DNA of 64,000 nucleotides from Quatrionicoccus australiensis (GTDB taxonomy: Bacteria; Pseudomonadota; Gammaproteobacteria; Burkholderiales; Rhodocyclaceae), in assembly GCF_020510425.1 (NCBI RefSeq), contig NZ_JAHBAH010000001.1, forward strand, positions 3,887,001 to 3,951,000, given 5' to 3'. How positions within the stretch are numbered: the stretch's first letter is position 1; each line of letters starts with the position of its first letter. This document shows, piece by piece, positions 1,463-17,010 of this stretch. A model generated the notes under the pieces. That model was not told the DNA's origin. It saw only the letters and a program-made list of their open reading frames with translations, and ran no database searches. The translations under genes and the position numbers were made by a program.

Positions 1463-2821
1463 GTGGCCAAGGTCAAATCGATTTACAGCTGTACCGAATG
1501 CGGTGCAAGCAGTCCGAAGTGGCAGGGCCAGTGTCCGGGCTGCGGCGAGTGGAATACCTTGGTCGAGTCGGTCGCCGAGAAGGCGAGCGGACATCGTTTC
1601 GAGTCGCTGGCACCGACTGCGAAGTTGCAGAACCTGTCGGAAATCGAGGCGCGTGAAACCGAGCGCATCCCGACCGGGATCGGCGAATTCGACCGCGCCC
1701 TCGGCGGCGGCCTGGTGCCGGGCGGCGTCGTGCTGATCGGCGGCGACCCCGGCATCGGCAAGAGCACCTTGCTGCTGCAGGCCCTGTCGCTGCTCTCGCT
1801 GGGCCAGAAGGTGCTCTACATCAGCGGCGAGGAATCCGGCGAGCAGGTCGCCCTGCGCGCCCGCCGACTCGGTCTCGATACCCGGCAACTGCAGTTGATG
1901 GCCGAGATCAATCTCGAACGCATCGTCGGTACGTTGCAGGCCGAGCAGCCGCGCGTCGCGGTGATCGACTCGATCCAGACCCTGTGGTCGGATCAGTTGT
2001 CGAGTGCGCCGGGCTCGGTGGCGCAGGTGCGCGAATGCGCGGCGCAACTGACGCGGCTCGCCAAGCAGGCCGGCATCACCATCATCCTGGTCGGCCACGT
2101 CACCAAGGACGGCGCGCTGGCCGGGCCGCGCGTCCTCGAACACATCGTCGATACCGTGCTCTATTTCGAAGGCGACACGCATTCCAGCTTCCGCTTGGTG
2201 CGGGCCGTCAAGAACCGCTTCGGCGCGGTCAACGAACTCGGCGTCTTCGCGATGACCGAGACCGGCTTGAAGGGGGTCAGCAATCCGTCGGCGCTGTTCC
2301 TGTCGCAGCACGGTCAGGATGTCGCCGGTTCCTGCGTAATGGTGACGCAGGAAGGCACGCGGCCGCTGCTGGTCGAGATCCAGGCGCTGGTCGACACCTC
2401 GCACGGTAATCCGCGCCGGCTGACGGTCGGCCTCGAAGCGCAGCGTCTGGCGATGCTGCTCGCCGTGCTGCACCGGCATGCCGGCATTGTTTGTTTCGAC
2501 CAGGATGTTTTCGTCAATGCGGTGGGCGGCGTCAAGATTACCGAGCCGGCGGCCGACTTGGCAGTGTTGATGTCGATTACTTCTTCATTGAAAAACAAGC
2601 CGTTGCCATCGAAACTTATAGTATTTGGTGAGGTTGGTCTGGCCGGTGAAATTCGGCCGGCGCCGCGCGGTCAGGAGCGTCTGAAGGAGGCCGCCAAGCT
2701 CGGTTTTACGCGTGCCCTGATCCCCGAAGCGAATCGGCCGAAGCAGGCGATAGCCGGCATGGAGGTGATTGCCGTCAAACGGGTCGAGGAGGCAGTGGCG
2801 CGGATACGCGAGCTGGACTAA
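1463..2821 (+). CDS. radA: DNA repair protein RadA
   Basis: RecA-like ATPase that helps branch migration during recombinational repair. It starts with GTG directly after the alr stop. The N-terminus carries the four-cysteine zinc finger (CTECG and CPGCG, residues ~11-30). The ATPase core has Walker A GDPGIGKST (~residue 95) and the RadA-specific KNRFG motif (~residue 251). The last ~150 residues resemble the inactive Lon-protease-like domain. Length (452 aa) is normal for the family and all diagnostic motifs are intact. Confidence 0.97.
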   Translation: MAKVKSIYSCTECGASSPKWQGQCPGCGEWNTLVESVAEKASGHRFESLAPTAKLQNLSEIEARETERIPTGIGEFDRALGGGLVPGGVVLIGGDPGIGKSTLLLQALSLLSLGQKVLYISGEESGEQVALRARRLGLDTRQLQLMAEINLERIVGTLQAEQPRVAVIDSIQTLWSDQLSSAPGSVAQVRECAAQLTRLAKQAGITIILVGHVTKDGALAGPRVLEHIVDTVLYFEGDTHSSFRLVRAVKNRFGAVNELGVFAMTETGLKGVSNPSALFLSQHGQDVAGSCVMVTQEGTRPLLVEIQALVDTSHGNPRRLTVGLEAQRLAMLLAVLHRHAGIVCFDQDVFVNAVGGVKITEPAADLAVLMSITSSLKNKPLPSKLIVFGEVGLAGEIRPAPRGQERLKEAAKLGFTRALIPEANRPKQAIAGMEVIAVKRVEEAVARIRELD

Positions 2822-2849
2822 GCTGCTCGCTACCTCCTGACCGGCAGCC

Positions 2850-4937
2850 ATGTTCAATCTTTCGCGCTACTTCTCGACGCTCAGTTTTGTTCTCATCGTG
2901 CTGGCAGCCGGCGGCCTGGGGCTGCTTTACCGCGAGTTGTCTCTGCATCAGATCAGCGAGCTGGCAGAAAGCCGCAATGTCGCGATGGCGCAGATCTTCG
3001 AGAATGCCTTGCGCCAGCCTCTCGAACGTCTGATCAGTGCATCAATCGGGCGAGATGGCGGGGAAATGCTGCGTAGCGGAGAGATCGAGACGCTGCGCGC
3101 GAGTTCGCAGGCGTTGATGCGCAACACTGCCGTGATCAAGGTCAAGATCTACAACCGGCTCGGCTTGACGGTCTTTTCCACGGACGCCCGGCAGGTTGGC
3201 GAAAGCCGCCTGGAAAATCCCGGTTTTCGTTCGGCAATCAATGGCGTGGTGCTCAGCGAACTGGTCCATCGCAATACGGCGGATACGATGGAAGGCAGTG
3301 TCAGCGATGTCGATCTGCTGTCGAGTTACATCCCGATTTACGGTGAAGGCCACATGATAGAAGGGGTGTTCGAGCTCTATCAGGATGTCTCCCCGTTCAT
3401 GGCGCAGTCGCGGCGCAGCCTGTGGTGGGTGATGGCCGGGGTGCTGTCGGTCTGTGCCGCGCTGTACCTGATGCAGTTTCTGGTCGTACGCCGTGCCCAG
3501 CGCATTCTCAAGGAGCAGGAGGGGCGCATCAAGGCAGCGCGCGATACGCTGGAAATCCAGGTCGATGCCCGTACCGCCGAACTCAAGCGGGCCAACAGCC
3601 AGCTGGAAGAAGAGGTGGGAGTGCGGCGTCAGGCTGAAAGCAAGCTGAATTACCTGGCCTATCACGACCCGCTGACCGGGCTGGCCAACCGGCGCTGTTT
3701 CATCGAGCGCCTCGAAGAAAGCATGCAGGAAGCCGTGCGCAGCGAACAGCGCCTGGCGGTGTTGTTCATCGATCTCGACCAGTTCAAGCAGGTCAATGAT
3801 TCGCTGGGCCACGGTGTTGGCGATGAACTGCTGGTGTCGGTGGCGTCACGTCTTTCCGAGCATGTGCGCCTGATCGACATGCTGGCCCGCCTGGGTGGCG
3901 ACGAGTTCATCTGCCTGATGGAGGGTGTGCGCGATGCCGAAGATGTGGCCTTGCTGGCGCAGGAAATCAACGCGGCTTTTGCGGCGGTCTTCCTGCTCGG
4001 CGAGCACGAGCTGTTTCTTTCGGCCTCGATCGGCATCTGCCTCTATCCCGGCGATGGCGACAACGTGCTTGAGCTGATGCGCAATGCCGATACGGCGATG
4101 TACCGTGCCAAGGGGCAGGGGCGCGGCCTTTTCCATTTCTACACGCCGGAAATGACGCGCGATGCCCGCGAACGTATCCGTCTGGAAAACCTGCTGCGCG
4201 GCGCGCTCGACAATGGCGAGATTTCGTTGCATTTCCAGCCCCAGGTCGATGCGGCGGATGGCCGGCTGGTCGGTGCCGAAGCCCTGGCACGCTGGGACAG
4301 CCCGCGTCTGGGCAGCGTCAGTCCGGTGCGCTTCATTCCGCTGGCCGAGGATTCCGGCATGATCATCGCGCTCGGCAGCTGGGTGTTGCGCGAGAGTTGT
4401 CGCCAGATCGTCCAGTGGCAGGCCGCTGGCTTCGATTTGCCACAGGTGTCGGTCAATATTTCGGTCAAGCAGCTGGAGCGGCCGGGCTTTGTCAGCGATC
4501 TGGCGGCGATCATTGCCGAAACCGGCGTCACGCCGGCCTGCCTGAAACTCGAGATCACCGAGTCGGTGGTGCTGGCGATGGCCGATGCCTGCGCCTTGCT
4601 TGAGCGTGTGCGGGCGCTCGGCGTGACGCTGGCCCTCGACGATTTCGGTACCGGTTATTCGTCGCTGAGTTATCTCAAGCTTTTGCCAGTCGATCAATTG
4701 AAGATCGATCGTTCCTTCATCATCGGCATCGGCAGCAACTCCGGCGACGAGGCAATCATCGAAACGGTGATGGCGCTGGCGCGCAGCCTCGGTTTCGAGG
4801 TGCTCGCCGAAGGCGTTGAAACGGTCGGTCAGGCGGAATTTTTGAGCGGCCACGGCTGCCACCAGTTCCAGGGCTTTCTTTACGGCAAGGCGGTCGCCGC
4901 CGACGAGTTCCAGGCGACCTGGCAGGCCCGGCCATGA
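2850..4937 (+). CDS. Membrane-bound GGDEF/EAL cyclic-di-GMP enzyme
   Basis: A 695-residue inner-membrane signalling protein. Membrane segments at ~6-26 and ~193-213 flank a periplasmic sensor region of ~165 residues, followed by a short coiled coil. The GGDEF domain has an intact RLGGDEF site near residue 348, so diguanylate cyclase activity is possible. The EAL domain (GAEALARW, ~473; DDFGTGYSS, ~597; LKIDRSFI, ~617; EGVE) keeps the residues needed for phosphodiesterase activity. Which activity dominates cannot be read from sequence. Its stop overlaps the start of the downstream permease (ATGA). Confidence 0.92.
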   Translation: MFNLSRYFSTLSFVLIVLAAGGLGLLYRELSLHQISELAESRNVAMAQIFENALRQPLERLISASIGRDGGEMLRSGEIETLRASSQALMRNTAVIKVKIYNRLGLTVFSTDARQVGESRLENPGFRSAINGVVLSELVHRNTADTMEGSVSDVDLLSSYIPIYGEGHMIEGVFELYQDVSPFMAQSRRSLWWVMAGVLSVCAALYLMQFLVVRRAQRILKEQEGRIKAARDTLEIQVDARTAELKRANSQLEEEVGVRRQAESKLNYLAYHDPLTGLANRRCFIERLEESMQEAVRSEQRLAVLFIDLDQFKQVNDSLGHGVGDELLVSVASRLSEHVRLIDMLARLGGDEFICLMEGVRDAEDVALLAQEINAAFAAVFLLGEHELFLSASIGICLYPGDGDNVLELMRNADTAMYRAKGQGRGLFHFYTPEMTRDARERIRLENLLRGALDNGEISLHFQPQVDAADGRLVGAEALARWDSPRLGSVSPVRFIPLAEDSGMIIALGSWVLRESCRQIVQWQAAGFDLPQVSVNISVKQLERPGFVSDLAAIIAETGVTPACLKLEITESVVLAMADACALLERVRALGVTLALDDFGTGYSSLSYLKLLPVDQLKIDRSFIIGIGSNSGDEAIIETVMALARSLGFEVLAEGVETVGQAEFLSGHGCHQFQGFLYGKAVAADEFQATWQARP

Positions 4938-7420
4938 TCGGCCTGGCCTGGCGCCTGCTCGGGCGCGAGCTGCGCTCCGGTGAATTGCGCCTGCTGCTGG
5001 CGGCGCTGGTGGTTGCCGTTGCCGCGGTCAGCGCGGTCGGCTTTTTTGCCGACCGGGTGCGTCTGGCGCTGGACAGCCAGGCACAGCAACTGCTGGGCGG
5101 GGATCTGATATTGATTGCCGATCATCCCTGGCCGGCCGGCATTGTTGATGAAGCTGGCCGGCGTGGTCTGCAAGTTGCCGAAACGCTGACTTTTCCGAGT
5201 ATGGTGCAAGCCGCCGGGCAGGTTCAGCTGGCCGATATCAAGGCAGTCAGCAGCAACTATCCCTTGCGCGGCAGCCTGGGCGTGACGCGGATGCGCGGTG
5301 CGCCAGCCGCCGCGGTCAATGCCGGGCCGCTGGCGGGCATGGTCTGGCTCGACGAGCGTCTGGCCGATGCCCTCCAAGTCGCGCCCGGTGCCATGCTCAC
5401 CCTGGGTAACAGTCGCTTGCGGGTCGATGCGATCCTGGTGCAGGAGCCGGATCGCAGCTTCAACCTGTTCAGCCTGGCTCCGCGTCTGATGATGAATGTC
5501 GCCGATATTCCGGCGAGCGGCCTCGTCCAGTTCGGTTCGCGCGTCACTTACCGGCGCCTGCTGGCCGGTGAGCCAGGCGCGCTGAGTGGCTTCCGCAACT
5601 GGCTGGAGGGCAGGCTGGCGCACGGTGAACGTGTCGAAGATGCACAAAATGCCCGCCCGGAAATTCGCAGTGCGCTGGAGCGGGCGCAGCGCTTTCTTGG
5701 TTTGGCGACCCTGTTGACCGTTGTCCTGGCGGCGGTGGCCGTCGCCCTGGCGGCGCGCCGCTACATGCAGCGTCATCTCGATGCCTGTGCCGTGCTGCGC
5801 TGTTTCGGCATGACGCAGCGCCGGCTGATCGGTCTGCATGCCTGGCTGTTTGCCTGGCTGGCCTTGCTCGCCATCGGGCTGGGCGGTCTACTCGGATTTT
5901 TCGGTCATTTTGTTCTCAGTGAATGGCTGGCGGCTTTGCTCGGGAGCCGCTTGCCCTTGCCCGGTGCCTGGCCCTTGCTGCAAGGCGCGGCGGTCGTCCT
6001 GGTCCTGCTCTTCGGTTTTGCCCTGCCGCCGGTGCTGCAACTGAGCCGGGTGCCGACCCTGCGCGTGCTGCGCCGCGAACTGGGGCCGCCGACGCCCTGG
6101 CTGCTCGGCGGTTACGGGCTCGGCCTGTTGCTGCTCGCCGGCCTGATGTTGCTGGTGGCCGACGATAGACGGTTGGGCGGCATCGCGGTAGCCGGCTTTG
6201 CCGGCGCGCTGGGCGTTTTCTGGCTGTTTGCCCGGCTGGCCGTGCTGGTCATCGGCGGCATGCGCCGGGGCGGCGCTTTCGGCTGGCGCCAGGGCATGGC
6301 GAACCTGTCCCGGCATGCGGCCTCGAGCAGCTTGCAGATTGTCGCGCTGGCGATCGGCTTGATGGCCATGCTTCTGCTCACGGTGACCCGCGGCGAGTTG
6401 CTGGCGGCCTGGCAGAAGGCGTCGCCGCTCGATGCGCCGAACCGCTTCGTCATCAATATCCAGCCCGGGCAGCGCGCCCAGATGGCGGCGAGCCTGGCGG
6501 CCGCGGGGATCAAGGCCGAGTTGTCGCCGATGATTCGGGCGCGTTTGCAGAAAATTGCCGGTCGACCGGTTTCGGCGGCCAGTTTTCCTGAGGATGAGCG
6601 GGCGCAGCGCCTGATCGAGCGCGAGTTCAATCTCTCCTGGCGGGCCGAAATGCCGGCCGCCAACCAGATTGTCGCCGGCCGGTGGTTTGCGCCGCCGGCG
6701 AGCGGGCAGGCCGAGGCTTCGGTCGAGGAAGGGCTGGCCAGGACGCTGGGTATCAAGCTCGGCGACGAACTGCTGTTCATGATCGCCGGACAGGAAAAGT
6801 CGCTGCGCGTCAGCAGCCTGCGCAAGCTCGACTGGGATTCGATGCGCGTCAATTTCTTTGTGCTGACGCCGCCCGGCGTGATCGAGGATGCGCCGGCCAG
6901 CTACATCACCAGTTTTTATCAGCCGGAAACGGCAACTGCCTTCGGGCGGCAACTGGTGGCGCAATTTCCCAATCTGACGGTGATCGACGTGGCGGCGGTG
7001 TTGCGCCAGTTGCAGGACCTGGTCGGCCAGGTCGCCGGGGCCGTGCAGTTCATCTTCCTGTTTACGCTGGCGGCCGGTGCCATCGTGCTTTATGCCGCGC
7101 TGCTCAGTGCCTTCGACGAGCGGCGTTACGAACTGGCGGTGATGCGTGCTCTTGGCGCACGCCGCCCGCAATTGCGCCAGGCGATGCTGGCCGAACTGGC
7201 GGTGATCGGCGGTCTGGCCGGTCTGCTCGCCGCCGCCGGTGCGATGGCGCTCGGTCAACTGATCGCATGGCGGGTTTTTGCCCTGGAATTGCCGTTGACC
7301 GTATGGCTGCCGCTGGCTTCCTTGCTGGGCGGTGCGCTGCTGGCGATTGCCATCGGCTGGCTGGCCATCCGCAGCCTGCTCGATACGCCACCGCTGCAGG
7401 CCTTGCGGGCGGGGGCCTAA
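4934..7420 (+). CDS. FtsX-like ABC transporter permease, YbbP type
   Basis: An 828-residue polytopic membrane protein. One transmembrane helix near the N-terminus is followed by a large periplasmic domain, clustered helices at ~255-480, a second periplasmic domain, and three helices at the C-terminus. This duplicated FtsX/MacB layout is that of YbbP-type permeases, which work with a YbbA-like ATPase. No ATPase gene is adjacent here; instead the gene is translationally coupled to the GGDEF/EAL gene. Substrate unknown; lipoprotein or envelope-lipid handling is inferred from the family only. It overlaps the convergent RsbW-like gene by four bases. Confidence 0.85.
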   Translation: MIGLAWRLLGRELRSGELRLLLAALVVAVAAVSAVGFFADRVRLALDSQAQQLLGGDLILIADHPWPAGIVDEAGRRGLQVAETLTFPSMVQAAGQVQLADIKAVSSNYPLRGSLGVTRMRGAPAAAVNAGPLAGMVWLDERLADALQVAPGAMLTLGNSRLRVDAILVQEPDRSFNLFSLAPRLMMNVADIPASGLVQFGSRVTYRRLLAGEPGALSGFRNWLEGRLAHGERVEDAQNARPEIRSALERAQRFLGLATLLTVVLAAVAVALAARRYMQRHLDACAVLRCFGMTQRRLIGLHAWLFAWLALLAIGLGGLLGFFGHFVLSEWLAALLGSRLPLPGAWPLLQGAAVVLVLLFGFALPPVLQLSRVPTLRVLRRELGPPTPWLLGGYGLGLLLLAGLMLLVADDRRLGGIAVAGFAGALGVFWLFARLAVLVIGGMRRGGAFGWRQGMANLSRHAASSSLQIVALAIGLMAMLLLTVTRGELLAAWQKASPLDAPNRFVINIQPGQRAQMAASLAAAGIKAELSPMIRARLQKIAGRPVSAASFPEDERAQRLIEREFNLSWRAEMPAANQIVAGRWFAPPASGQAEASVEEGLARTLGIKLGDELLFMIAGQEKSLRVSSLRKLDWDSMRVNFFVLTPPGVIEDAPASYITSFYQPETATAFGRQLVAQFPNLTVIDVAAVLRQLQDLVGQVAGAVQFIFLFTLAAGAIVLYAALLSAFDERRYELAVMRALGARRPQLRQAMLAELAVIGGLAGLLAAAGAMALGQLIAWRVFALELPLTVWLPLASLLGGALLAIAIGWLAIRSLLDTPPLQALRAGA

Positions 7421-7812
7421 AGCATCAGTTCGATGATGTTGCGTCCGTTCTGACGCTGGTAGCGAAAGAGGCTGGTCATGCCACGGATCAATTCGATGCC
7501 GAGACCGCCAATATCGGCGGTGCATTCACTTGGTGCGAACCGGGTCGGATCGAAAGCGCCGGCCGTGTCGCTGTAGGTCAGCAAGGGATGGGGCATTTTT
7601 GGCTCGAAACGGATGTCGACCGCTGCGTCGCATTCCCGGCCATGGCCGTGGCGGATGGTGTTGGTCAGCAATTCCTCGACGATCAGTTGCAGGCGCTGGC
7701 CGTCGATCTGGCTCAGGCCGAAGCGCTCGGCCTGCTCGGCAAGCCAGCACATGAGGCCGGGCAGCTCGCTGTAGCGCGCACTGACTGAAATATCCGTAGA
7801 ATGGGCAGGCAT
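7417..7812 (-). CDS. RsbW-like serine kinase / anti-sigma-type ATPase
   Basis: A 131-residue GHKL ATPase of the RsbW/SpoIIAB class. The N-box is EELLTNTIRHGH (residues 46-57) and the G-box region is GGLGIELIRGM (~102-112). Such proteins phosphorylate a STAS antagonist and bind a target protein, classically a sigma factor. No sigma gene is in the window next to it. A cognate phosphatase and STAS protein are encoded a few kilobases away, which suggests a local partner-switching circuit. The gene diverges from the FecR gene with ~22 bp between the start codons. Confidence 0.85.
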   Translation of the reverse strand: MPAHSTDISVSARYSELPGLMCWLAEQAERFGLSQIDGQRLQLIVEELLTNTIRHGHGRECDAAVDIRFEPKMPHPLLTYSDTAGAFDPTRFAPSECTADIGGLGIELIRGMTSLFRYQRQNGRNIIELML

Positions 7813-7834
7813 GATTTATCGGGAGGAAGCAGAC

Positions 7835-8293
7835 ATGATTAAAACACATCACAAGGCTGCCTGGGCGCTGCTTGCGCTGGCTTTCAGCCTCGCCGCACAG
7901 GCCGCCGATCCGGCCGGCATGGTCAAGACCAGCAGCGGTCAGGTCAGTATCGAACGCGGTGGCCAGAAGCTGATCGCCGTGGTCGGCACGCCGGTCTATG
8001 TCTCCGACAAGCTGCGCACGGCAGGCGACAGCGCGGTTGGCGTGACCCTGCGCGATACCACCTTGCTGTCGGCCGGACCGAACTCCCTGATCGTCATCGA
8101 CAAGTTCGCCTACGACACCACCTCGCAGGCTGGCAACATGTCGATCGGCATTCGCAAGGGGACGCTGGCCGTGGCCAGCGGCAAGATCGCCAAGCAGACG
8201 CCGGAATCGGTCGATTTCCATACGCCGACCTCGGTGCTCGGTGTGCGCGGCACGGAGTTCGCTGTTGAAGTGGGAGGCGACAATGAAGAATGA
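7835..8293 (+). CDS. Secreted FecR-domain protein
   Basis: A 152-residue exported protein. I place the start at the second ATG (7835) because GGAGGAAG lies just upstream and a signal peptide follows at once (cleavage near AQAAD, ~residue 25). The mature part is a FecR domain: GQVSIERGG, then LRTAGDSAVGVTLRDTT, then a segment ending TPTSVLGVRGTEFAVE. In stand-alone FecR proteins of this kind there is no sigma-regulator cytoplasmic domain, so it probably acts as a periplasmic or envelope scaffold. The last eleven bases overlap the OmpA-like gene. Confidence 0.85.
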   Translation: MIKTHHKAAWALLALAFSLAAQAADPAGMVKTSSGQVSIERGGQKLIAVVGTPVYVSDKLRTAGDSAVGVTLRDTTLLSAGPNSLIVIDKFAYDTTSQAGNMSIGIRKGTLAVASGKIAKQTPESVDFHTPTSVLGVRGTEFAVEVGGDNEE

Positions 8294-8873
8294 AATGCGT
8301 CTGTCGCTGCTTTCGCTGGCATTGCTGATGCTCGCCGGCTGTGCCAGCAGTGAACGTGTGGTGCTGCTGCCTTCGGCCGATGGCCGTGCCAGCGCTGTCG
8401 TGGTGCGCGATGCCAAGGGCGAGCTGGTGCTTGATCAGCCTTATGCCGGCAGTGTGCGCAGTCAGGGCACCAACAGCGCCTACCGGTCGACGCCGGAAGA
8501 AGTGAAAGAACGCTTCGGTGCGGCCCTGGCTGCCCAACCGGCACGCCCGCGCAGCTACACGCTGTATTTCCAGGGCGGCAATCAGCTGACGCCCGAATCG
8601 CAGGCCGAGTTTGCCAAGATGCGGGCCGATGTTCTCGCCTGGTCGGCGCCGGAAATCATGGTTATCGGCCATACCGACCGGGTCGGCAGTGTCCAGTCCA
8701 ACGATGCCTTGTCGCTCAAGCGTGCCGAGTCGGTGCGCGCCTTGCTGATCGAGGCAGGAATCCCCGCCGGCAAGCTGGAAGCGGTTGGTCGCGGCGAGCG
8801 GGAACCGCTGGTGGCGACGGCTGATGAAGTCGCCGAAGGCAAAAATCGCCGGGTTGAAATCAACCTGCGCTGA
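8283..8873 (+). CDS. OmpA-family peptidoglycan-binding lipoprotein
   Basis: A 196-residue lipoprotein. The start at 8283 is preceded by GGGAGG (8272-8277) and opens into a type II signal peptide with lipobox LAGC. The C-terminal ~100 residues are an OmpA-like domain: VIGHTDRVG, LSLKRAESVR, GRGEREPL and NRRVEI, the set that binds diaminopimelate in peptidoglycan. It is co-transcribed with the overlapping FecR gene, so the pair likely forms an envelope unit. Its end overlaps the convergent CHASE2-phosphatase gene by 14 bases. Confidence 0.9.
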   Translation: MKNEMRLSLLSLALLMLAGCASSERVVLLPSADGRASAVVVRDAKGELVLDQPYAGSVRSQGTNSAYRSTPEEVKERFGAALAAQPARPRSYTLYFQGGNQLTPESQAEFAKMRADVLAWSAPEIMVIGHTDRVGSVQSNDALSLKRAESVRALLIEAGIPAGKLEAVGRGEREPLVATADEVAEGKNRRVEINLR

Positions 8874-10989
8874 GCAGTTGACCGTTGTAATTCAACACAA
8901 GCAGGGTCAGGTCATCCGCCGCCGGGTGGCCTGACTCGAAGCTGCGCACGGCGTCGCGCAGTGCGCCGGTGATCTCGGCCGGGCTGTGCCCGGCATTGGC
9001 CTGCAGTGTTGCCAGCAGGCGCTCGGCGCCGAACAGCGAACGGCCATCGCTGGCTTCGGTCACGCCATCGGTGTACAGGCAGAGCTGATCGCCTGCCTGC
9101 AGGCGGATGCGGTCGCTGACGAAGGCGTAGCCTTCGGTGGCGCAGAGCGGCGGCCCCGAATGGCTGGCCGTATCGATCTTTCCGATTTCTCCATCGCGCA
9201 ACAGCAGCGGCGCATCGTGGCCGGCGCAGACGAACTCCAGTTCGCCGCTCGTTGCATCGAGAATGCCGATGAAGGCGGTGACGAAAAGAAACTCGCCGTT
9301 TTCCCGGTTCAACTCCTGTTCGACTTCGCGGACAGCCTGGGCGAGATCGGCTTCGCGCCGGGTCAAGGTGCCACTCAGCGTTTTCGCGATGGCCATGAAC
9401 AGGCTGGCCGGAATGCCCTTGCCGGAAACGTCGCCGACGGTCAGGCAGAGGCGGTTGGCATCGAGCATGAAACAGTCGTAGTAGTCGCCGCCGACGGCGA
9501 GTGCCGGTTCGAGCAGGGCGGCAACGGAAAAACGTTGTTCCCCGGCGAACAGGCGTTGCGGGTCGGGCAGCAGGCCCATCTGGATACGGCGGGCGGCATC
9601 GAGTTGGCCGGCGGTGCGGGCGGCGGCCTCGCGGCTGAGCTGGAGAGCGGACTCGGCCTGGCGGCGGCGGGCATCGGCTTCGATCAGCGTATTGCCGAGC
9701 AGCACGATGAAGACCGGGCTGAGAAGCAGCACCAGCGACGGGCCATCGAACAGCCATTGGCCGGAATAAAAGACAAGGTAGCCGGCGCCAGTCAGCAGGA
9801 GTCCCAGGCTGCCGAAGCTGATCACGGCAAAACGTGGCTGCAGGCGCGGTACACCGGTAATCAACAACAGGCCGCCCAGGAGCAGGGCGCCCAGTTCAAG
9901 TGTCGGCATCCACCAGGGGCGCTTGAGCGCGGCGCCGCTCAGCATGCTTTCAATGACCTGGGCGTGGATGTCTACGCCGGGCAGGACTTCGCCCAGCGGG
10001 GTGATGATGCGGTCCTGCAAGCCGGGGCTATTCAAGCCGAGGATGACAAAGCGCGACTGGAAAATTTCTGCTGGCTGCGCGCCGGACAGGACATCGGCGG
10101 CGGACAGGAAGTAATTCGAGTTGGCCTGACCATAATGAACCAGCAGTTCGCCATTGGCCTGGGTGGGCAGGCGGTAGTCGCCGATACGCAGCGCCTCCAT
10201 GCCATGACCGCCGAATTCCGGGGCTACATCGCCGGCTTCGCCCAGCGCCTGGCGCAGCATTTCCAGGGGGAGCGACAAGAAAGTCTGTTCATTGATTCGG
10301 GCAATGGTCGGTACCCGGCGCAGCACGCCGCGCTCTGTGCTGGAGTGCAGGCCGTCCGGGCTGGCATTGATCAAGCCTTCGCCAGCTGCTGCCTGTTCCA
10401 GTTCGCCACGACTGACGACGGCGGTAGCGAACCGGCTGATGCCCGGCCAGTCGGCCGGCATGCCTGCCAGCAGGGGCAAGGGCTTGGCAGGCTGGCGCGC
10501 GCCGGGCAGCGGATTGCCGATGCCGGCAATGGCGAGCACGGTCGGGCCGCCGGCAAGCACGTGCGCGAGATGCGCATCCGGCTCGGGCAGCGCGGCGAGT
10601 GTCTGTCTGGGCAGTCCCTTGAGTTGTTCGCCGAGAACAATCGGGCTGTAGCGGTCGGGTTCGGCAAAGATGATGTCGATGCCCAGTGCCAGCGGCTGGC
10701 CAGCCAGAATTTTGCTGCAGAGGCGGGCAATCAGGTCGCGCGACCAGGGCCATTGTCCGTATTCGGCAAGGCTTTGGCTGTCGATGCCGACGATGATGAC
10801 GGGTTCGCTTTCCCGCGGGCGTGGCATCTGGCGCTGGTAGCGGTCGAATTGCGCCTGACGCAGGCTGTTCAGTGGCGTCGAGTCGCTGTAATGCAGCGTA
10901 ATGGCGGCACCGATCAGCAGGAGGCCGGGCAGGGCCAGCCCACGCCCGGCGCGGAGCAGCATCAGACCGAAGCTGCTCAGGCGTTTCAC
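8860..10989 (-). CDS. CHASE2-sensor SpoIIE-type protein phosphatase
   Basis: A 709-residue membrane receptor. An N-terminal helix (~17-33) leads into a periplasmic CHASE2 domain (~40-340), then three hydrophobic helices (~357-435), a short coiled coil and a cytoplasmic PP2C/SpoIIE domain. The phosphatase motifs are complete: GGDYYD, GDVSGKG, GHDAPL, YTDGVTEA and ADDLTLL, so the metal-binding aspartates are present. The family role is to dephosphorylate a STAS antagonist and so release it to capture an RsbW-type kinase. Here the STAS gene lies two genes upstream in the same operon. The signal sensed is unknown. Confidence 0.92.
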   Translation of the reverse strand: MKRLSSFGLMLLRAGRGLALPGLLLIGAAITLHYSDSTPLNSLRQAQFDRYQRQMPRPRESEPVIIVGIDSQSLAEYGQWPWSRDLIARLCSKILAGQPLALGIDIIFAEPDRYSPIVLGEQLKGLPRQTLAALPEPDAHLAHVLAGGPTVLAIAGIGNPLPGARQPAKPLPLLAGMPADWPGISRFATAVVSRGELEQAAAGEGLINASPDGLHSSTERGVLRRVPTIARINEQTFLSLPLEMLRQALGEAGDVAPEFGGHGMEALRIGDYRLPTQANGELLVHYGQANSNYFLSAADVLSGAQPAEIFQSRFVILGLNSPGLQDRIITPLGEVLPGVDIHAQVIESMLSGAALKRPWWMPTLELGALLLGGLLLITGVPRLQPRFAVISFGSLGLLLTGAGYLVFYSGQWLFDGPSLVLLLSPVFIVLLGNTLIEADARRRQAESALQLSREAAARTAGQLDAARRIQMGLLPDPQRLFAGEQRFSVAALLEPALAVGGDYYDCFMLDANRLCLTVGDVSGKGIPASLFMAIAKTLSGTLTRREADLAQAVREVEQELNRENGEFLFVTAFIGILDATSGELEFVCAGHDAPLLLRDGEIGKIDTASHSGPPLCATEGYAFVSDRIRLQAGDQLCLYTDGVTEASDGRSLFGAERLLATLQANAGHSPAEITGALRDAVRSFESGHPAADDLTLLVLNYNGQLLSAG

Positions 10990-11948
10990 AGTTCGATGGT
11001 CAGGCCGTCGTAGGCGGAAATGACGTCGAGTGCTGCGCCATCACCGCGGGTGATTTGTTCCAGGCGTCGCGTTTCGTTAAGCAGGCGAAGCAGTTGCTTG
11101 TCGTCGTGGACCGGTTCGTGGTGAAACAGCGCGAGGCGTTTGGCCGCGGCTGCCTGGCATAGCTCGACACCAACCACGTTGCTCGAGTGGCCCCAGTCGG
11201 CCTTGACCGAGATGGCTTCGGCCAGTGAATACATGGCATCGAAAATGACCAGGTCGGCCTTGGCAAAGAAGCGGATGAAGGCGTCGCGTTCTTCTCCGGC
11301 ATCGAGGCGATGTTCCGAGTCGGTCGTGTAGATGACGGTGCGGTCGATACTCTCGAAGCGGTAGCCGTAAGAGTCGCCGGCATGCAGTTGCAGCTTGGGG
11401 GTGACATTGAGGCCGGCGATGTAGTGCGCCTTGTCCGGTGTCATCAGGTCGAATTCGATGCGGGCACCGGCTTGCGAATAGTCGACCGGGAAGCACGGCG
11501 AACGCATCTGCATGCGGAAGGCTTCTTCAAGCTGGGCGTGGCAGCCGTGGATCACGATGCGGTTGCCGGGGATATACATCGGCGCAAAGTACGGGAAGCC
11601 CATCAGGTGGTCCCAGTGCAGATGCGAGATGAAAATGTGATAGACCTGCGGATTGGGAACGCCGAAGCTGGCGATCTTGGCCTGGCCCAGAGGGCGGGCG
11701 CCGCTGCCCATGTCGCAGATGATGTGTTCCGGGCCATCGGTGACGATTTCGACACAGGAAGTGTTGCCACCAAAGGTGCTGCTCGTCGAAAAGGGCAGGC
11801 TGGCGACGAATTCGTTCAGGGCGCTCTGCGACTTGAATTTCCGCCCGTCGGCGGCGGTCACGGCGGCACAGATTTTTTCCCGGATGTCGCGTGATTGCAG
11901 CGCGACCGGCAATGAGCCACGGGTCCCCCAGAAAACGACCCGTTTCAT
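10986..11948 (-). CDS. Metallo-beta-lactamase-fold hydrolase
   Basis: A 320-residue cytoplasmic protein with no signal peptide. The metal site SHLHWDHLMGF (~residue 109) and later TTDSEH and WGHSS segments mark an active dinuclear MBL-fold enzyme. The overall layout, opening with a WGTRGSLPV segment, is that of the phosphodiesterase/RNase Z-like branch. It overlaps the STAS gene upstream and the CHASE2 phosphatase downstream by four bases each, so all three are one translationally coupled operon. Substrate unknown; a nucleotide phosphodiester is a guess from family resemblance. Confidence 0.85.
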   Translation of the reverse strand: MKRVVFWGTRGSLPVALQSRDIREKICAAVTAADGRKFKSQSALNEFVASLPFSTSSTFGGNTSCVEIVTDGPEHIICDMGSGARPLGQAKIASFGVPNPQVYHIFISHLHWDHLMGFPYFAPMYIPGNRIVIHGCHAQLEEAFRMQMRSPCFPVDYSQAGARIEFDLMTPDKAHYIAGLNVTPKLQLHAGDSYGYRFESIDRTVIYTTDSEHRLDAGEERDAFIRFFAKADLVIFDAMYSLAEAISVKADWGHSSNVVGVELCQAAAAKRLALFHHEPVHDDKQLLRLLNETRRLEQITRGDGAALDVISAYDGLTIEL

Positions 11949-12292
11949 TTGCCGAGTACCTTGCAGGCCGCTTCGATGTTCAGATAGCAGGGAATGATCA
12001 GGTTGAAGCGACTGATCGCGAAGACTTCCTGAACCAGCGGCTGCAGCGAGGTGATGGCAAAGACGCCCTGTTGTGCCTTGGCATGCCGGGAAGCAATCAT
12101 CAATACGCGCAGACCGGCGCTGCTGATGTACTCCACGCCGGAAAAATCGAGCAGCAGCGGCGGTTTGCCGGGCTGGCAGTCTGCGATCAGCGCCTCCAGG
12201 GCGTTGCCGAACGCCTCGCTGGCGATGTGGTCGATACGGCCGCTGGCCGATGCAATGAGGATGCCGGATTGTTCGCGAGTGAGGAGCTTCAT
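11945..12292 (-). CDS. STAS-domain anti-sigma factor antagonist
   Basis: A 115-residue single-domain STAS protein of the SpoIIAA/RsbV type. The phosphorylatable serine lies in EYISSAGLRVLM (Ser57 or Ser58). It is the first gene of the minus-strand operon STAS - MBL hydrolase - CHASE2 phosphatase. By family knowledge, the unphosphorylated form binds an RsbW-like kinase; the nearest candidate kinase is encoded at 7417-7812. The upstream 78 bp separates it from divergent ygiQ. Confidence 0.9.
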   Translation of the reverse strand: MKLLTREQSGILIASASGRIDHIASEAFGNALEALIADCQPGKPPLLLDFSGVEYISSAGLRVLMIASRHAKAQQGVFAITSLQPLVQEVFAISRFNLIIPCYLNIEAACKVLGK

Positions 12293-12370
12293 CGTTGCCA
12301 GACGTGGTTTATGCAGTAGCCGGTGATTATGCCATGCACGGCCGGGCTGTGGGCTCGGGTAAAATACGGC

Positions 12371-14584
<2,214 letters not shown>

Positions 14585-14608
14585 ATAAAAAAAGTTTTTC
14601 GGAGAGCA

Positions 14609-15013
14609 ATGAGTATGGAAAGCAAGGAAAGCACGGCAACGACCTATGAAAAGATCGGTGGCGAAGCGACGGTCGGCAAGCTGGCAGATCGCTTTTACGA
14701 GTTGATGGACAGTGTTTCGCATTTTGCCGAGTTGCGTGCCATGCATCCGGAAAGCCTGGCCGGGTCGCGGGAGAAACTGTTCATGTTCCTCTCCGGCTGG
14801 TTCGGTGGCCCGGATCTTTTCGTCGAAAAATTCGGTCATCCGAAATTGCGTGCCCGGCACATGCCCTTTGCCATCGGCACCAAGGAGCGCGACCAGTGGG
14901 TCGCCTGCATGGTGCTGGCGATGGAAGACGTCGGGCTGGACCCGGATGTCCGCAAGGTGTTGCTGAACAATTTCTTCAATACAGCTGATTTCATGCGTAA
15001 TAAAGAGGGCTAA
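14609..15013 (+). CDS. Group II truncated haemoglobin
   Basis: A 134-residue 2-on-2 globin. The segment GHPKLRARHMPF places the proximal (F8) histidine near residue 83, and the tryptophan in KERDQWVACM is the G8 Trp typical of group II (trHbO). Such globins bind O2 or NO and are linked to redox protection. A CGGAGAG ribosome-binding site precedes the ATG; a second in-frame ATG lies two codons downstream. It follows ygiQ by 24 bp and could be co-transcribed with it. Confidence 0.9.
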   Translation: MSMESKESTATTYEKIGGEATVGKLADRFYELMDSVSHFAELRAMHPESLAGSREKLFMFLSGWFGGPDLFVEKFGHPKLRARHMPFAIGTKERDQWVACMVLAMEDVGLDPDVRKVLLNNFFNTADFMRNKEG

Positions 15014-15048
15014 AACCCTTCTTGGGGATGTTGCGTTGCAGCATGGGG

Positions 15049-15057
15049 TGATAGAAT
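15049..15057 (+). promoter_or_regulatory. Probable extended -10 promoter for typA
   Basis: TG-N-TAGAAT at 15049-15057 forms an extended -10 element, with a weak TTGCGT at 15031-15036 (15-bp spacing). It lies 28 bp upstream of the typA start and after the globin stop. Confidence 0.4.
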
Positions 15058-15084
15058 CACGCCTTTGATTTTTCAGGCCTTCCC

Positions 15085-16926
<1,842 letters not shown>

Positions 16927-16980
16927 GCAAGCGCAGCATGCGTTTCTGCCAGCCCTGCCGGGATGTGCTGAAACGCCAGC

Positions 16981-17010
16981 AAAAGGCGGCCCGTCGGGTC
17001 GCCTTTTTTA
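16981..17010 (+). terminator. Rho-independent terminator of typA
   Basis: A 10-bp stem with one G-T pair (AAGGCGGCCC / GGGTCGCCTT) around a short loop, followed by six T. It lies about 55 bp after the typA stop. Confidence 0.85.

What the first reader, a model, noticed from the sequence alone, without database searches (positions are those of the whole stretch)
7417..12292. Self-contained partner-switching cluster built around a CHASE2-SpoIIE receptor
Six tightly packed genes encode an RsbW-like kinase, FecR protein, OmpA-like lipoprotein, CHASE2-PP2C phosphatase, MBL-fold hydrolase and STAS antagonist. All three parts of a classical partner switch are intact by motif. The phosphatase carries its own periplasmic sensor, and no sigma factor lies near. 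This points to an envelope-sensing switch whose output is not a local sigma factor; the output could be the hydrolase, the adjacent GGDEF/EAL protein, or a distant target.
Basis: partly seen in the sequence, partly recalled or inferred. Interest (0 to 1): 0.78.

Follow-up and report, generated by a model that had tools for sequence, protein, structure and literature searches.

The report
Envelope-sensing phospho-switch with hydrolase output
Six neighbouring genes form a complete on/off protein switch that probably senses the cell envelope and may control a phosphodiesterase-like metal enzyme; the same six-gene block recurs, in the same order, in many related bacteria.

Summary
Window 7417-12292 carries an RsbW-like kinase, FecR protein, OmpA lipoprotein, CHASE2-PP2C phosphatase, MBL hydrolase and STAS protein, in three transcription directions. 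Of 71 related loci with enough contig, 63 keep all six in identical order and orientation. Catalytic and phosphosite residues are conserved. In 120 order-level genomes the same 13 carry strong MBL and CHASE2-PP2C orthologues.

Best reading: a non-sigma partner switch whose output is the MBL, an RNase Z/PhnP/PDE-type fold. In two Oxalobacteraceae the other five genes are gone from the same site while the MBL stays under purifying selection; two of five relatives examined are fused to receiver domains. Against: unrelated GGDEF genes lie near the kinase in 33 of 56 loci, so a c-di-GMP output is not excluded; three of 79 MBLs lost a metal ligand. The sensor set also occurs with a CHASE2-cyclase. 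Substrate and all interactions are unshown. Literature searches for the combination returned nothing. New variant of a known kind.

The parts
7417..7812 (-). RsbW-like serine kinase (HATPase_c_2), 131 aa, N, G1 and G2 motifs intact
   Evidence: Pfam PF13581 56.8 bits; E46, N51, D82, G102, G103, G105 conserved in 72-74 of 73-74 rows
7835..8293 (+). Secreted FecR-domain protein, 152 aa; divergent from the kinase, start codons about 22 bp apart
   Evidence: Pfam PF04773 36.3 bits; sequence
8283..8873 (+). OmpA-family lipoprotein (LAGC lipobox, read by eye), peptidoglycan-binding C-terminal domain; overlaps FecR by 11 bp, convergent with the phosphatase
   Evidence: Pfam PF00691 66.3 bits (given from codon 2); conserved TD-N-LS-RA motif in 76-79 of 79 rows
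8860..10989 (-). CHASE2-PP2C (SpoIIE) membrane phosphatase, 709 aa
   Evidence: Pfam PF05226 167.4 and PF07228 155.2 bits; metal Asp conserved
10986..11948 (-). MBL-fold hydrolase, 320 aa, dinuclear metal ligands intact, helical-hairpin insertion at residues about 15-52; proposed output
   Evidence: Pfam PF12706 52.3 bits; model pLDDT 84.2, pTM 0.81; fold matches RNase Z, YhfI, PhnP, PDE1; insertion absent in five distant relatives
11945..12292 (-). STAS-domain antagonist, 115 aa, phosphosite motif DFSGVEYISSAGLR
   Evidence: Pfam PF01740 57.7 bits; TIGR00377 61.5 over cut-off 53.45; S57 and S58 87 of 87

Best explanation
A conserved, self-contained partner-switching cassette of Betaproteobacteria and some other Gammaproteobacteria. 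Input (inferred): the outer-membrane, peptidoglycan-binding OmpA lipoprotein and the secreted FecR protein report an envelope condition to the CHASE2 domain of the membrane phosphatase. Switch (motif-level): the kinase phosphorylates the STAS protein on Ser57 or Ser58 and CHASE2-PP2C removes the phosphate. Output (inferred): the STAS protein, in one of its two states, binds and sets the activity of the MBL enzyme encoded between STAS and PP2C, a phosphodiesterase-type hydrolase probably acting on a nucleotide or RNA phosphodiester. Because the MBL is kept where the switch is lost, it is probably active alone, so the switch more likely restrains or tunes it than enables it. Shown: anatomy, conservation, co-occurrence, predicted fold class. 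Not shown: any interaction, phosphorylation, signal or substrate. My split estimates: partner switch with envelope sensor 0.85; MBL as main output 0.47 (lowered from 0.5); nucleotide or cyclic-nucleotide substrate given that 0.5.
For: Six genes in identical order and orientation in 63 of 71 loci with enough contig. Same 13 of 120 order genomes carry MBL and full-length CHASE2-PP2C orthologues at E below 1e-100, 107 neither at that level; in 101 family genomes all 8 with PP2C have MBL. MBL is the slowest-evolving member (mean distance 0.51; kinase 1.43). The MBL survives alone at the cassette's own site in L126 and L115, with no match to the other five genes better than E 0.3; both nest inside cassette-bearing groups, dN/dS in pairs with one of them 0.15-0.25. 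MBL alone also in G164 and L127; STAS and MBL alone in L088, and locally in L149. Of five non-cassette relatives whose gene was called, two are receiver-MBL fusions and two lie beside HDOD genes. FecR lies within 5 kb of 27 of 98 CHASE2 hits, about 1.3 expected.
Against: MBL-without-switch cases mostly come from a search anchored on MBL; the two surveys that can see both directions give 1 case (G164) against 0. Non-orthologous GGDEF genes recur near the kinase (33 of 56 loci against 13 of 57 at the other end), which would fit a c-di-GMP output. Three of 79 MBL rows have a metal ligand changed (L058 and L073 H111Q, L076 D210N; all MAGs). Mirror-tree partial correlation is highest for MBL-PP2C (0.45), modest for STAS-MBL (0.27), near zero for kinase-STAS (0.065). 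The kinase gene is missing locally in L072 and L082, and OmpA, FecR and kinase in L069.
Confidence: 0.47

Rival explanations
1. The switch acts on a distant target (a sigma factor, anti-sigma factor or other regulator elsewhere) through STAS or the kinase, and the MBL is a co-transcribed enzyme of the same response rather than the switch's direct target.
For: The kinase has its own transcription direction and is the fastest-evolving member, as expected if it meets a variable partner; 13 Sigma70_r2 hits exist in the genome; in known Gram-negative cases STAS proteins act on unlinked or unknown targets (PMC8256260 and PMC3999984, passages).
Against: MBL sits between STAS and PP2C with 4-bp overlaps in the window; PP2C orthologues were not seen without MBL in two surveys.
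Confidence: 0.27
2. The MBL is a sensor-side or feedback part: it removes or makes a small molecule that sets the phosphatase or kinase, so it sits upstream of the switch.
For: Highest mirror-tree partial correlation is MBL-PP2C (0.45); a different MBL follows a CHASE2-cyclase in the same genome.
Against: MBL outlives the switch in several lineages, odd for a dedicated feedback part.
Confidence: 0.12
3. A nearby c-di-GMP enzyme is an output: in the window the GGDEF/EAL protein at 2850-4937, elsewhere another GGDEF protein beside the kinase, as SiaD is in the Sia system.
For: A GGDEF-profile hit lies within 4 kb of the kinase end, on the opposite strand, in 33 of 56 loci with room, against 13 of 57 beyond the STAS end; SiaC activates SiaD (PMC8457831, abstract).
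Against: The proteins are not orthologous: architectures differ (membrane GGDEF-EAL; PAS-GGDEF-EAL; dCache-HAMP-PAS-GGDEF) and similarity is confined to the catalytic domains except within Oxalobacteraceae. Most of the 33 fall into two inherited neighbourhoods; 23 of 56 have none. In the window a YbbP-like gene lies between. GGDEF genes are common in such genomes (recalled).
Confidence: 0.1

Closest known systems
SiaABCD of Pseudomonas aeruginosa (PMC7647112, PMC8457831; abstracts read)
   Same: Dedicated PP2C phosphatase, kinase, antagonist-like phosphoprotein and an enzyme output rather than a sigma factor; the PP2C part gives a sub-threshold SiaA hit (44.5 bits, cut-off 700)
   Different: Output there is a diguanylate cyclase and the phosphosite Thr68; here the candidate output is an MBL hydrolase, the site is Ser, the sensor is CHASE2, and FecR and OmpA genes are part of the unit
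RsbU/V/W, SypA/SypE and RbaVWY partner switches (PMC8256260, PMC12826045, PMC3999984; passages read)
   Same: Kinase, STAS and PP2C components with intact motifs; targets other than sigma factors are known or suspected
   Different: None of the passages read describes an MBL partner or a FecR/OmpA/CHASE2 input
BiofilmReg operon of Burkholderia contaminans (PMC5192318, passages read)
   Same: FecR-domain protein encoded next to a CHASE2 membrane sensor
   Different: There LysM-FecR with a CHASE2 histidine kinase and a response regulator; here FecR without LysM, with a CHASE2-PP2C partner switch
RNase Z, YhfI, PhnP, yeast PDE1 and Apyc1 metallo-phosphodiesterase folds
   Different: Below the NCBIfam cut-offs for RNase Z (53.9 against 292.95) and cyclic nucleotide-degrading phosphodiesterase (38 against 400); a conserved helical hairpin at residues 15-52

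Membership tests
Partner-switching (Rsb/Spo-type) system | GHKL kinase of RsbW type with intact ATP-site motifs | tested here: met
   PF13581 over cut-off; E46, N51, D82, G103, G105 conserved
Partner-switching (Rsb/Spo-type) system | STAS antagonist with phosphorylatable Ser | tested here: met
   TIGR00377 over cut-off; S57, S58 87 of 87. The phosphosite assignment is by motif, recalled
Partner-switching (Rsb/Spo-type) system | PP2C/SpoIIE phosphatase with metal-binding Asp | tested here: met
   PF07228 155.2 bits; D502, D520 81 of 81, D641, D692, D693 80 of 80 ungapped rows
Partner-switching (Rsb/Spo-type) system | Kinase binds and phosphorylates STAS; exchange of partners | not testable with these tools
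   Needs biochemistry; mirror-tree kinase-STAS partial r 0.065 gives no support
Sigma-B/sigma-F type switch | Linked sigma factor target | tested here: not met
   Nearest Sigma70_r2 hit in the own genome about 28 kb away
SiaABCD | Diguanylate cyclase output encoded in the unit | tested here: not met
   No one GGDEF gene belongs to the conserved unit; in the window it is on the other strand beyond YbbP. Different GGDEF genes lie within 4 kb of the kinase in 33 of 56 loci
RNase Z (TIGR02651) | Curated equivalog score | tested here: not met
   53.9 bits against cut-off 292.95
Cyclic nucleotide-degrading phosphodiesterase (NF041851) | Curated equivalog score | tested here: not met
   38 bits against cut-off 400
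RNase Z/PhnP-class dinuclear MBL phosphodiesterases (fold class) | MBL fold with HxHxDH plus His, Asp, His ligands | tested here: met
   H109, H111, D113, H114, H189, D210, H276 present in the window; 77-79 of 79 rows; fold. Activity not tested
BiofilmReg (LysM-FecR/CHASE2-HK/RR) | CHASE2 histidine kinase with response regulator | tested here: not met
   CHASE2 is joined to SpoIIE/PP2C

The most novel reading that the evidence does not exclude
A partner switch that controls destruction of a signalling nucleotide: envelope state read by FecR, OmpA and CHASE2 sets the phospho-state of STAS, which gates an MBL phosphodiesterase, the reverse of SiaC activating a cyclase. The same input set is plugged into a CHASE2-cyclase beside a cNMP-binding patatin in another genome (L150), so one sensor module may feed either synthesis or degradation of a second messenger.
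Probability: 0.25. Interest if true: 0.8.

Novelty: new variant of a known kind. Interest (0 to 1): 0.62.

Why it matters
Partner switches outside Gram-positive sigma control are known in few cases, and their targets are often unknown. This is a six-gene unit, conserved across many Betaproteobacteria and in Nevskia, with its sensor, switch and a candidate enzyme output together, and with natural lineages that kept only the enzyme. That makes the question of what a non-sigma partner switch controls testable with gene deletions in harmless environmental bacteria, and it suggests that FecR plus CHASE2 is a reusable envelope-sensing input.

Tried and rejected
Considered and set aside: one six-gene operon (three directions); a linked sigma factor. 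The window's GGDEF/EAL protein as a conserved member: its orthologue and YbbP accompany the cassette only near the window (YbbP in 26 of 80 loci). On rechecking I found that other GGDEF genes recur on the kinase side, so I raised that rival from 0.04 to 0.1, lowered the distant-target rival from 0.3 to 0.27 and my own reading from 0.5 to 0.47. Promoter and terminator scan of 7300-12480: 0 promoter-like sites, 5 terminator-like sites against 3.9 expected, nothing usable. Rfam: no match in 2000-17000. Mirror-tree: all six genes correlate (raw r 0.73-0.92) but partials do not single out kinase-STAS. A first count of full loci (55) was lowered by over-long ORF starts; recounted on stop codons (63). 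Fetched and not used further: L151 (two genes called), L152, L198-L201, and L033 (genes called, not reported).

Literature: CHASE2+SpoIIE+partner switching 0 papers; CHASE2+FecR+OmpA 0; CHASE2 alone 47, 30 listed; partner-switching+PP2C+STAS domain+Gram-negative 3; antagonist/SpoIIE/CHASE2, at least two terms, 10; partner-switching+metallo-beta-lactamase+STAS 0; a five-term search for MBL as a response-regulator output 0; Sia terms 20, 8 listed; Rv1339 7, 6 listed; partner-switching+Gram-negative+FecR 2, not opened. Only this open-licence library was searched; PMC9293780 (Rv1339) was seen in the search listing only.
Full report
What is there. Directions: STAS, MBL and CHASE2-PP2C leftward, with 4-bp overlaps between neighbours; FecR and OmpA rightward, overlapping each other by 11 bp and meeting the phosphatase gene end to end with a 14-bp overlap; the kinase leftward, its start codon about 22 bp from that of FecR. 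So it is a compact cluster with three transcription directions, not an operon.

Conservation. A genome-collection scan with the MBL matched 321 relatives, of which the best 80 loci were returned. Counting on stop codons, 63 have all six genes in the same order and orientation, 8 are incomplete although the contig is long enough (L069, L072, L082, L087, L088, L115, L126, L127), 8 contigs are too short and 1 (L085) has a truncated MBL. Named organisms among the 80 include Dechloromonas, Azonexus, Pseudoduganella, Duganella, Rugamonas, Noviherbaspirillum, Rhodoferax, Chitinimonas and Nevskia. Taking the genes of five reference loci (L097, L099, L101, L111, L119) as queries at E<=1e-15, STAS, MBL, PP2C, OmpA and FecR have relatives in 65-80 of the 80 loci; flanking genes have them in 1-14, except one GGDEF gene of L111 with 45, as a broad family would. 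Kinase counts there are low (6-29) because it diverges fast; a profile finds 75 kinase ORFs over all loci then held. The unit's boundaries thus match the finding's coordinates.

GGDEF genes near the unit. Rechecking one search showed that GGDEF-profile hits lie within 4 kb of the kinase end, on the opposite strand, in 33 of 56 loci with room, against 13 of 57 beyond the STAS end. The proteins differ: the window's GGDEF-EAL protein has orthologues in its own group, where YbbP lies between; L086, L109 and L114 have PAS-GGDEF-EAL proteins; L111 and L096 have related dCache-HAMP-PAS-GGDEF proteins. Outside the Oxalobacteraceae pair, similarity to each other is limited mainly to the catalytic part. 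This may be chance in GGDEF-rich genomes plus inherited neighbourhoods, or a loose functional link to c-di-GMP.

Co-occurrence. In 120 genomes of the order, MBL orthologues with E below 1e-100 occur in 13 and full-length CHASE2-PP2C orthologues with E below 1e-100 in the same 13. In 101 genomes of the family, 9 have the MBL at E below 1e-100 and 8 have PP2C at E<=1e-60, all among the 9; the exception, G164, has an MBL with no STAS gene beside it. In 274 genomes of the class, 3 have the MBL at E<=1e-60: the window's own, G307 (same contig place as L093, where all six were found; my gene caller missed STAS and kinase in its copy L148) and G461 (L149: STAS and MBL only at that place).

Motifs. 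Conserved residues cover the kinase ATP site, the STAS SS motif, the PP2C metal aspartates, the MBL ligands and the OmpA peptidoglycan-binding motif. Three of 79 MBL rows, all MAGs, have a changed metal ligand; the window's copy is intact. Motif meanings for kinase, STAS, PP2C and OmpA are recalled from general knowledge.

The MBL. The AlphaFold2 model has mean pLDDT 84.2 and pTM 0.81. Best folds include RNase Z, YhfI, PhnP, yeast PDE1 and Apyc1; this says fold class, not substrate. Sequence scores stay far below the curated cut-offs of RNase Z and of the cyclic nucleotide-degrading phosphodiesterase family. A hairpin of two helices (residues 19-32 and 41-49) is present in the nine cassette and stand-alone copies aligned and absent from the five distant relatives aligned. 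I looked at the surroundings of seven distant relatives; in five the MBL gene was called: two are receiver-MBL fusions, two sit next to HDOD genes, one (L053) has no such partner. So this enzyme type serves as a signalling output in at least some relatives.

Natural loss of the switch. In L126 (Rugamonas brunnea) and L115 (Duganella callida) the MBL lies between the same Xan_ur_permease-family gene and the same THAP4-like heme-binding gene that flank the whole cassette in other Duganella and Rugamonas. The other five genes leave no recognisable remnant at that site. A PP2C copy elsewhere was excluded for L126's genome at E<=1e-20; L115's genome was not held. On the MBL tree L126 falls in a starred 14-row group and L115 in a starred 11-row group nested in it, both otherwise of cassette carriers; L127 and G164 fall elsewhere. 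Two separate losses are likely for L126 and L115, but some forks are open. Pairs that include one of them have dN/dS 0.15-0.25, cassette pairs 0.04-0.12: still purifying, somewhat relaxed. This favours the MBL as the part with lasting value and suggests that it works without the switch. Caveat: these loci were found through the MBL; the surveys that see both directions show one MBL without PP2C and no PP2C without MBL.

The input. FecR hits lie within 5 kb of 27 of 98 CHASE2 hits in 50 genomes, with about 1.3 expected under random placement in 3.5-Mb genomes, a rough estimate; 5 of the 27 are this cassette. In G049 (L150) CHASE2 is joined to a class III cyclase, with a convergent FecR gene, an OmpA lipoprotein and a cNMP-binding patatin next to it. 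A Burkholderia operon pairs LysM-FecR with a CHASE2 histidine kinase (PMC5192318, passages). FecR with CHASE2 thus looks like a reusable input; what it senses is unknown.

Own genome. Three other CHASE2 genes exist, two of them a Ser/Thr-kinase and a cyclase fusion by my reading of the sequence. One other SpoIIE phosphatase lies at C1:2440289 near an HATPase_c_2 hit at 2441876, probably a second partner switch that could cross-talk. The nearest sigma factor is about 28 kb away.

Judgement. A real, conserved unit for which my searches found no description. The kind (partner switch) is known; the combination of input set and candidate output is new to the library searched. The mechanism beyond motifs is inference.

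Noticed in passing
L150 5462-10779 (genome G049): The same FecR, OmpA and CHASE2 input set, but CHASE2 is joined to a guanylate/adenylate cyclase next to a cNMP-binding NTE-type patatin.
   Followed up: partly
window 2850-4937; L086 15721-17922; L109 15504-17843; L114 9025-11727; L111 15279-17291: GGDEF proteins of unrelated architecture recur beside the kinase end of the cassette, always on the opposite strand in the loci counted.
   Followed up: partly
L032 10276-17356 (own genome C1 about 2890300-2897400): Cluster of CHASE2-Ser/Thr kinase, PP2C, FHA, CHASE2-cyclase and an MBL gene of another type: a second CHASE2 locus with an MBL beside it (read by eye).
   Followed up: partly
own genome C1:2440289-2442229 (L209, L204): Second SpoIIE phosphatase near an HATPase_c_2 protein, probably another partner switch.
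   Followed up: no
L083 9298-10004: Two tandem STAS genes in front of the MBL in one Azonexaceae MAG (the same contig as L197).
   Followed up: no
L058, L073, L076: MBL copies with one metal ligand changed (H111Q, H111Q, D210N) in MAGs: dead enzymes or sequence errors.
   Followed up: partly
L112: Record titled Klebsiella pneumoniae (MAG) whose MBL groups with a gammaproteobacterial groundwater MAG next to Nevskia; the label is probably wrong.
   Followed up: no
L046 6320-7537, L047 6179-7396: Receiver-domain/MBL fusion proteins, an unusual response-regulator output type.
   Followed up: partly
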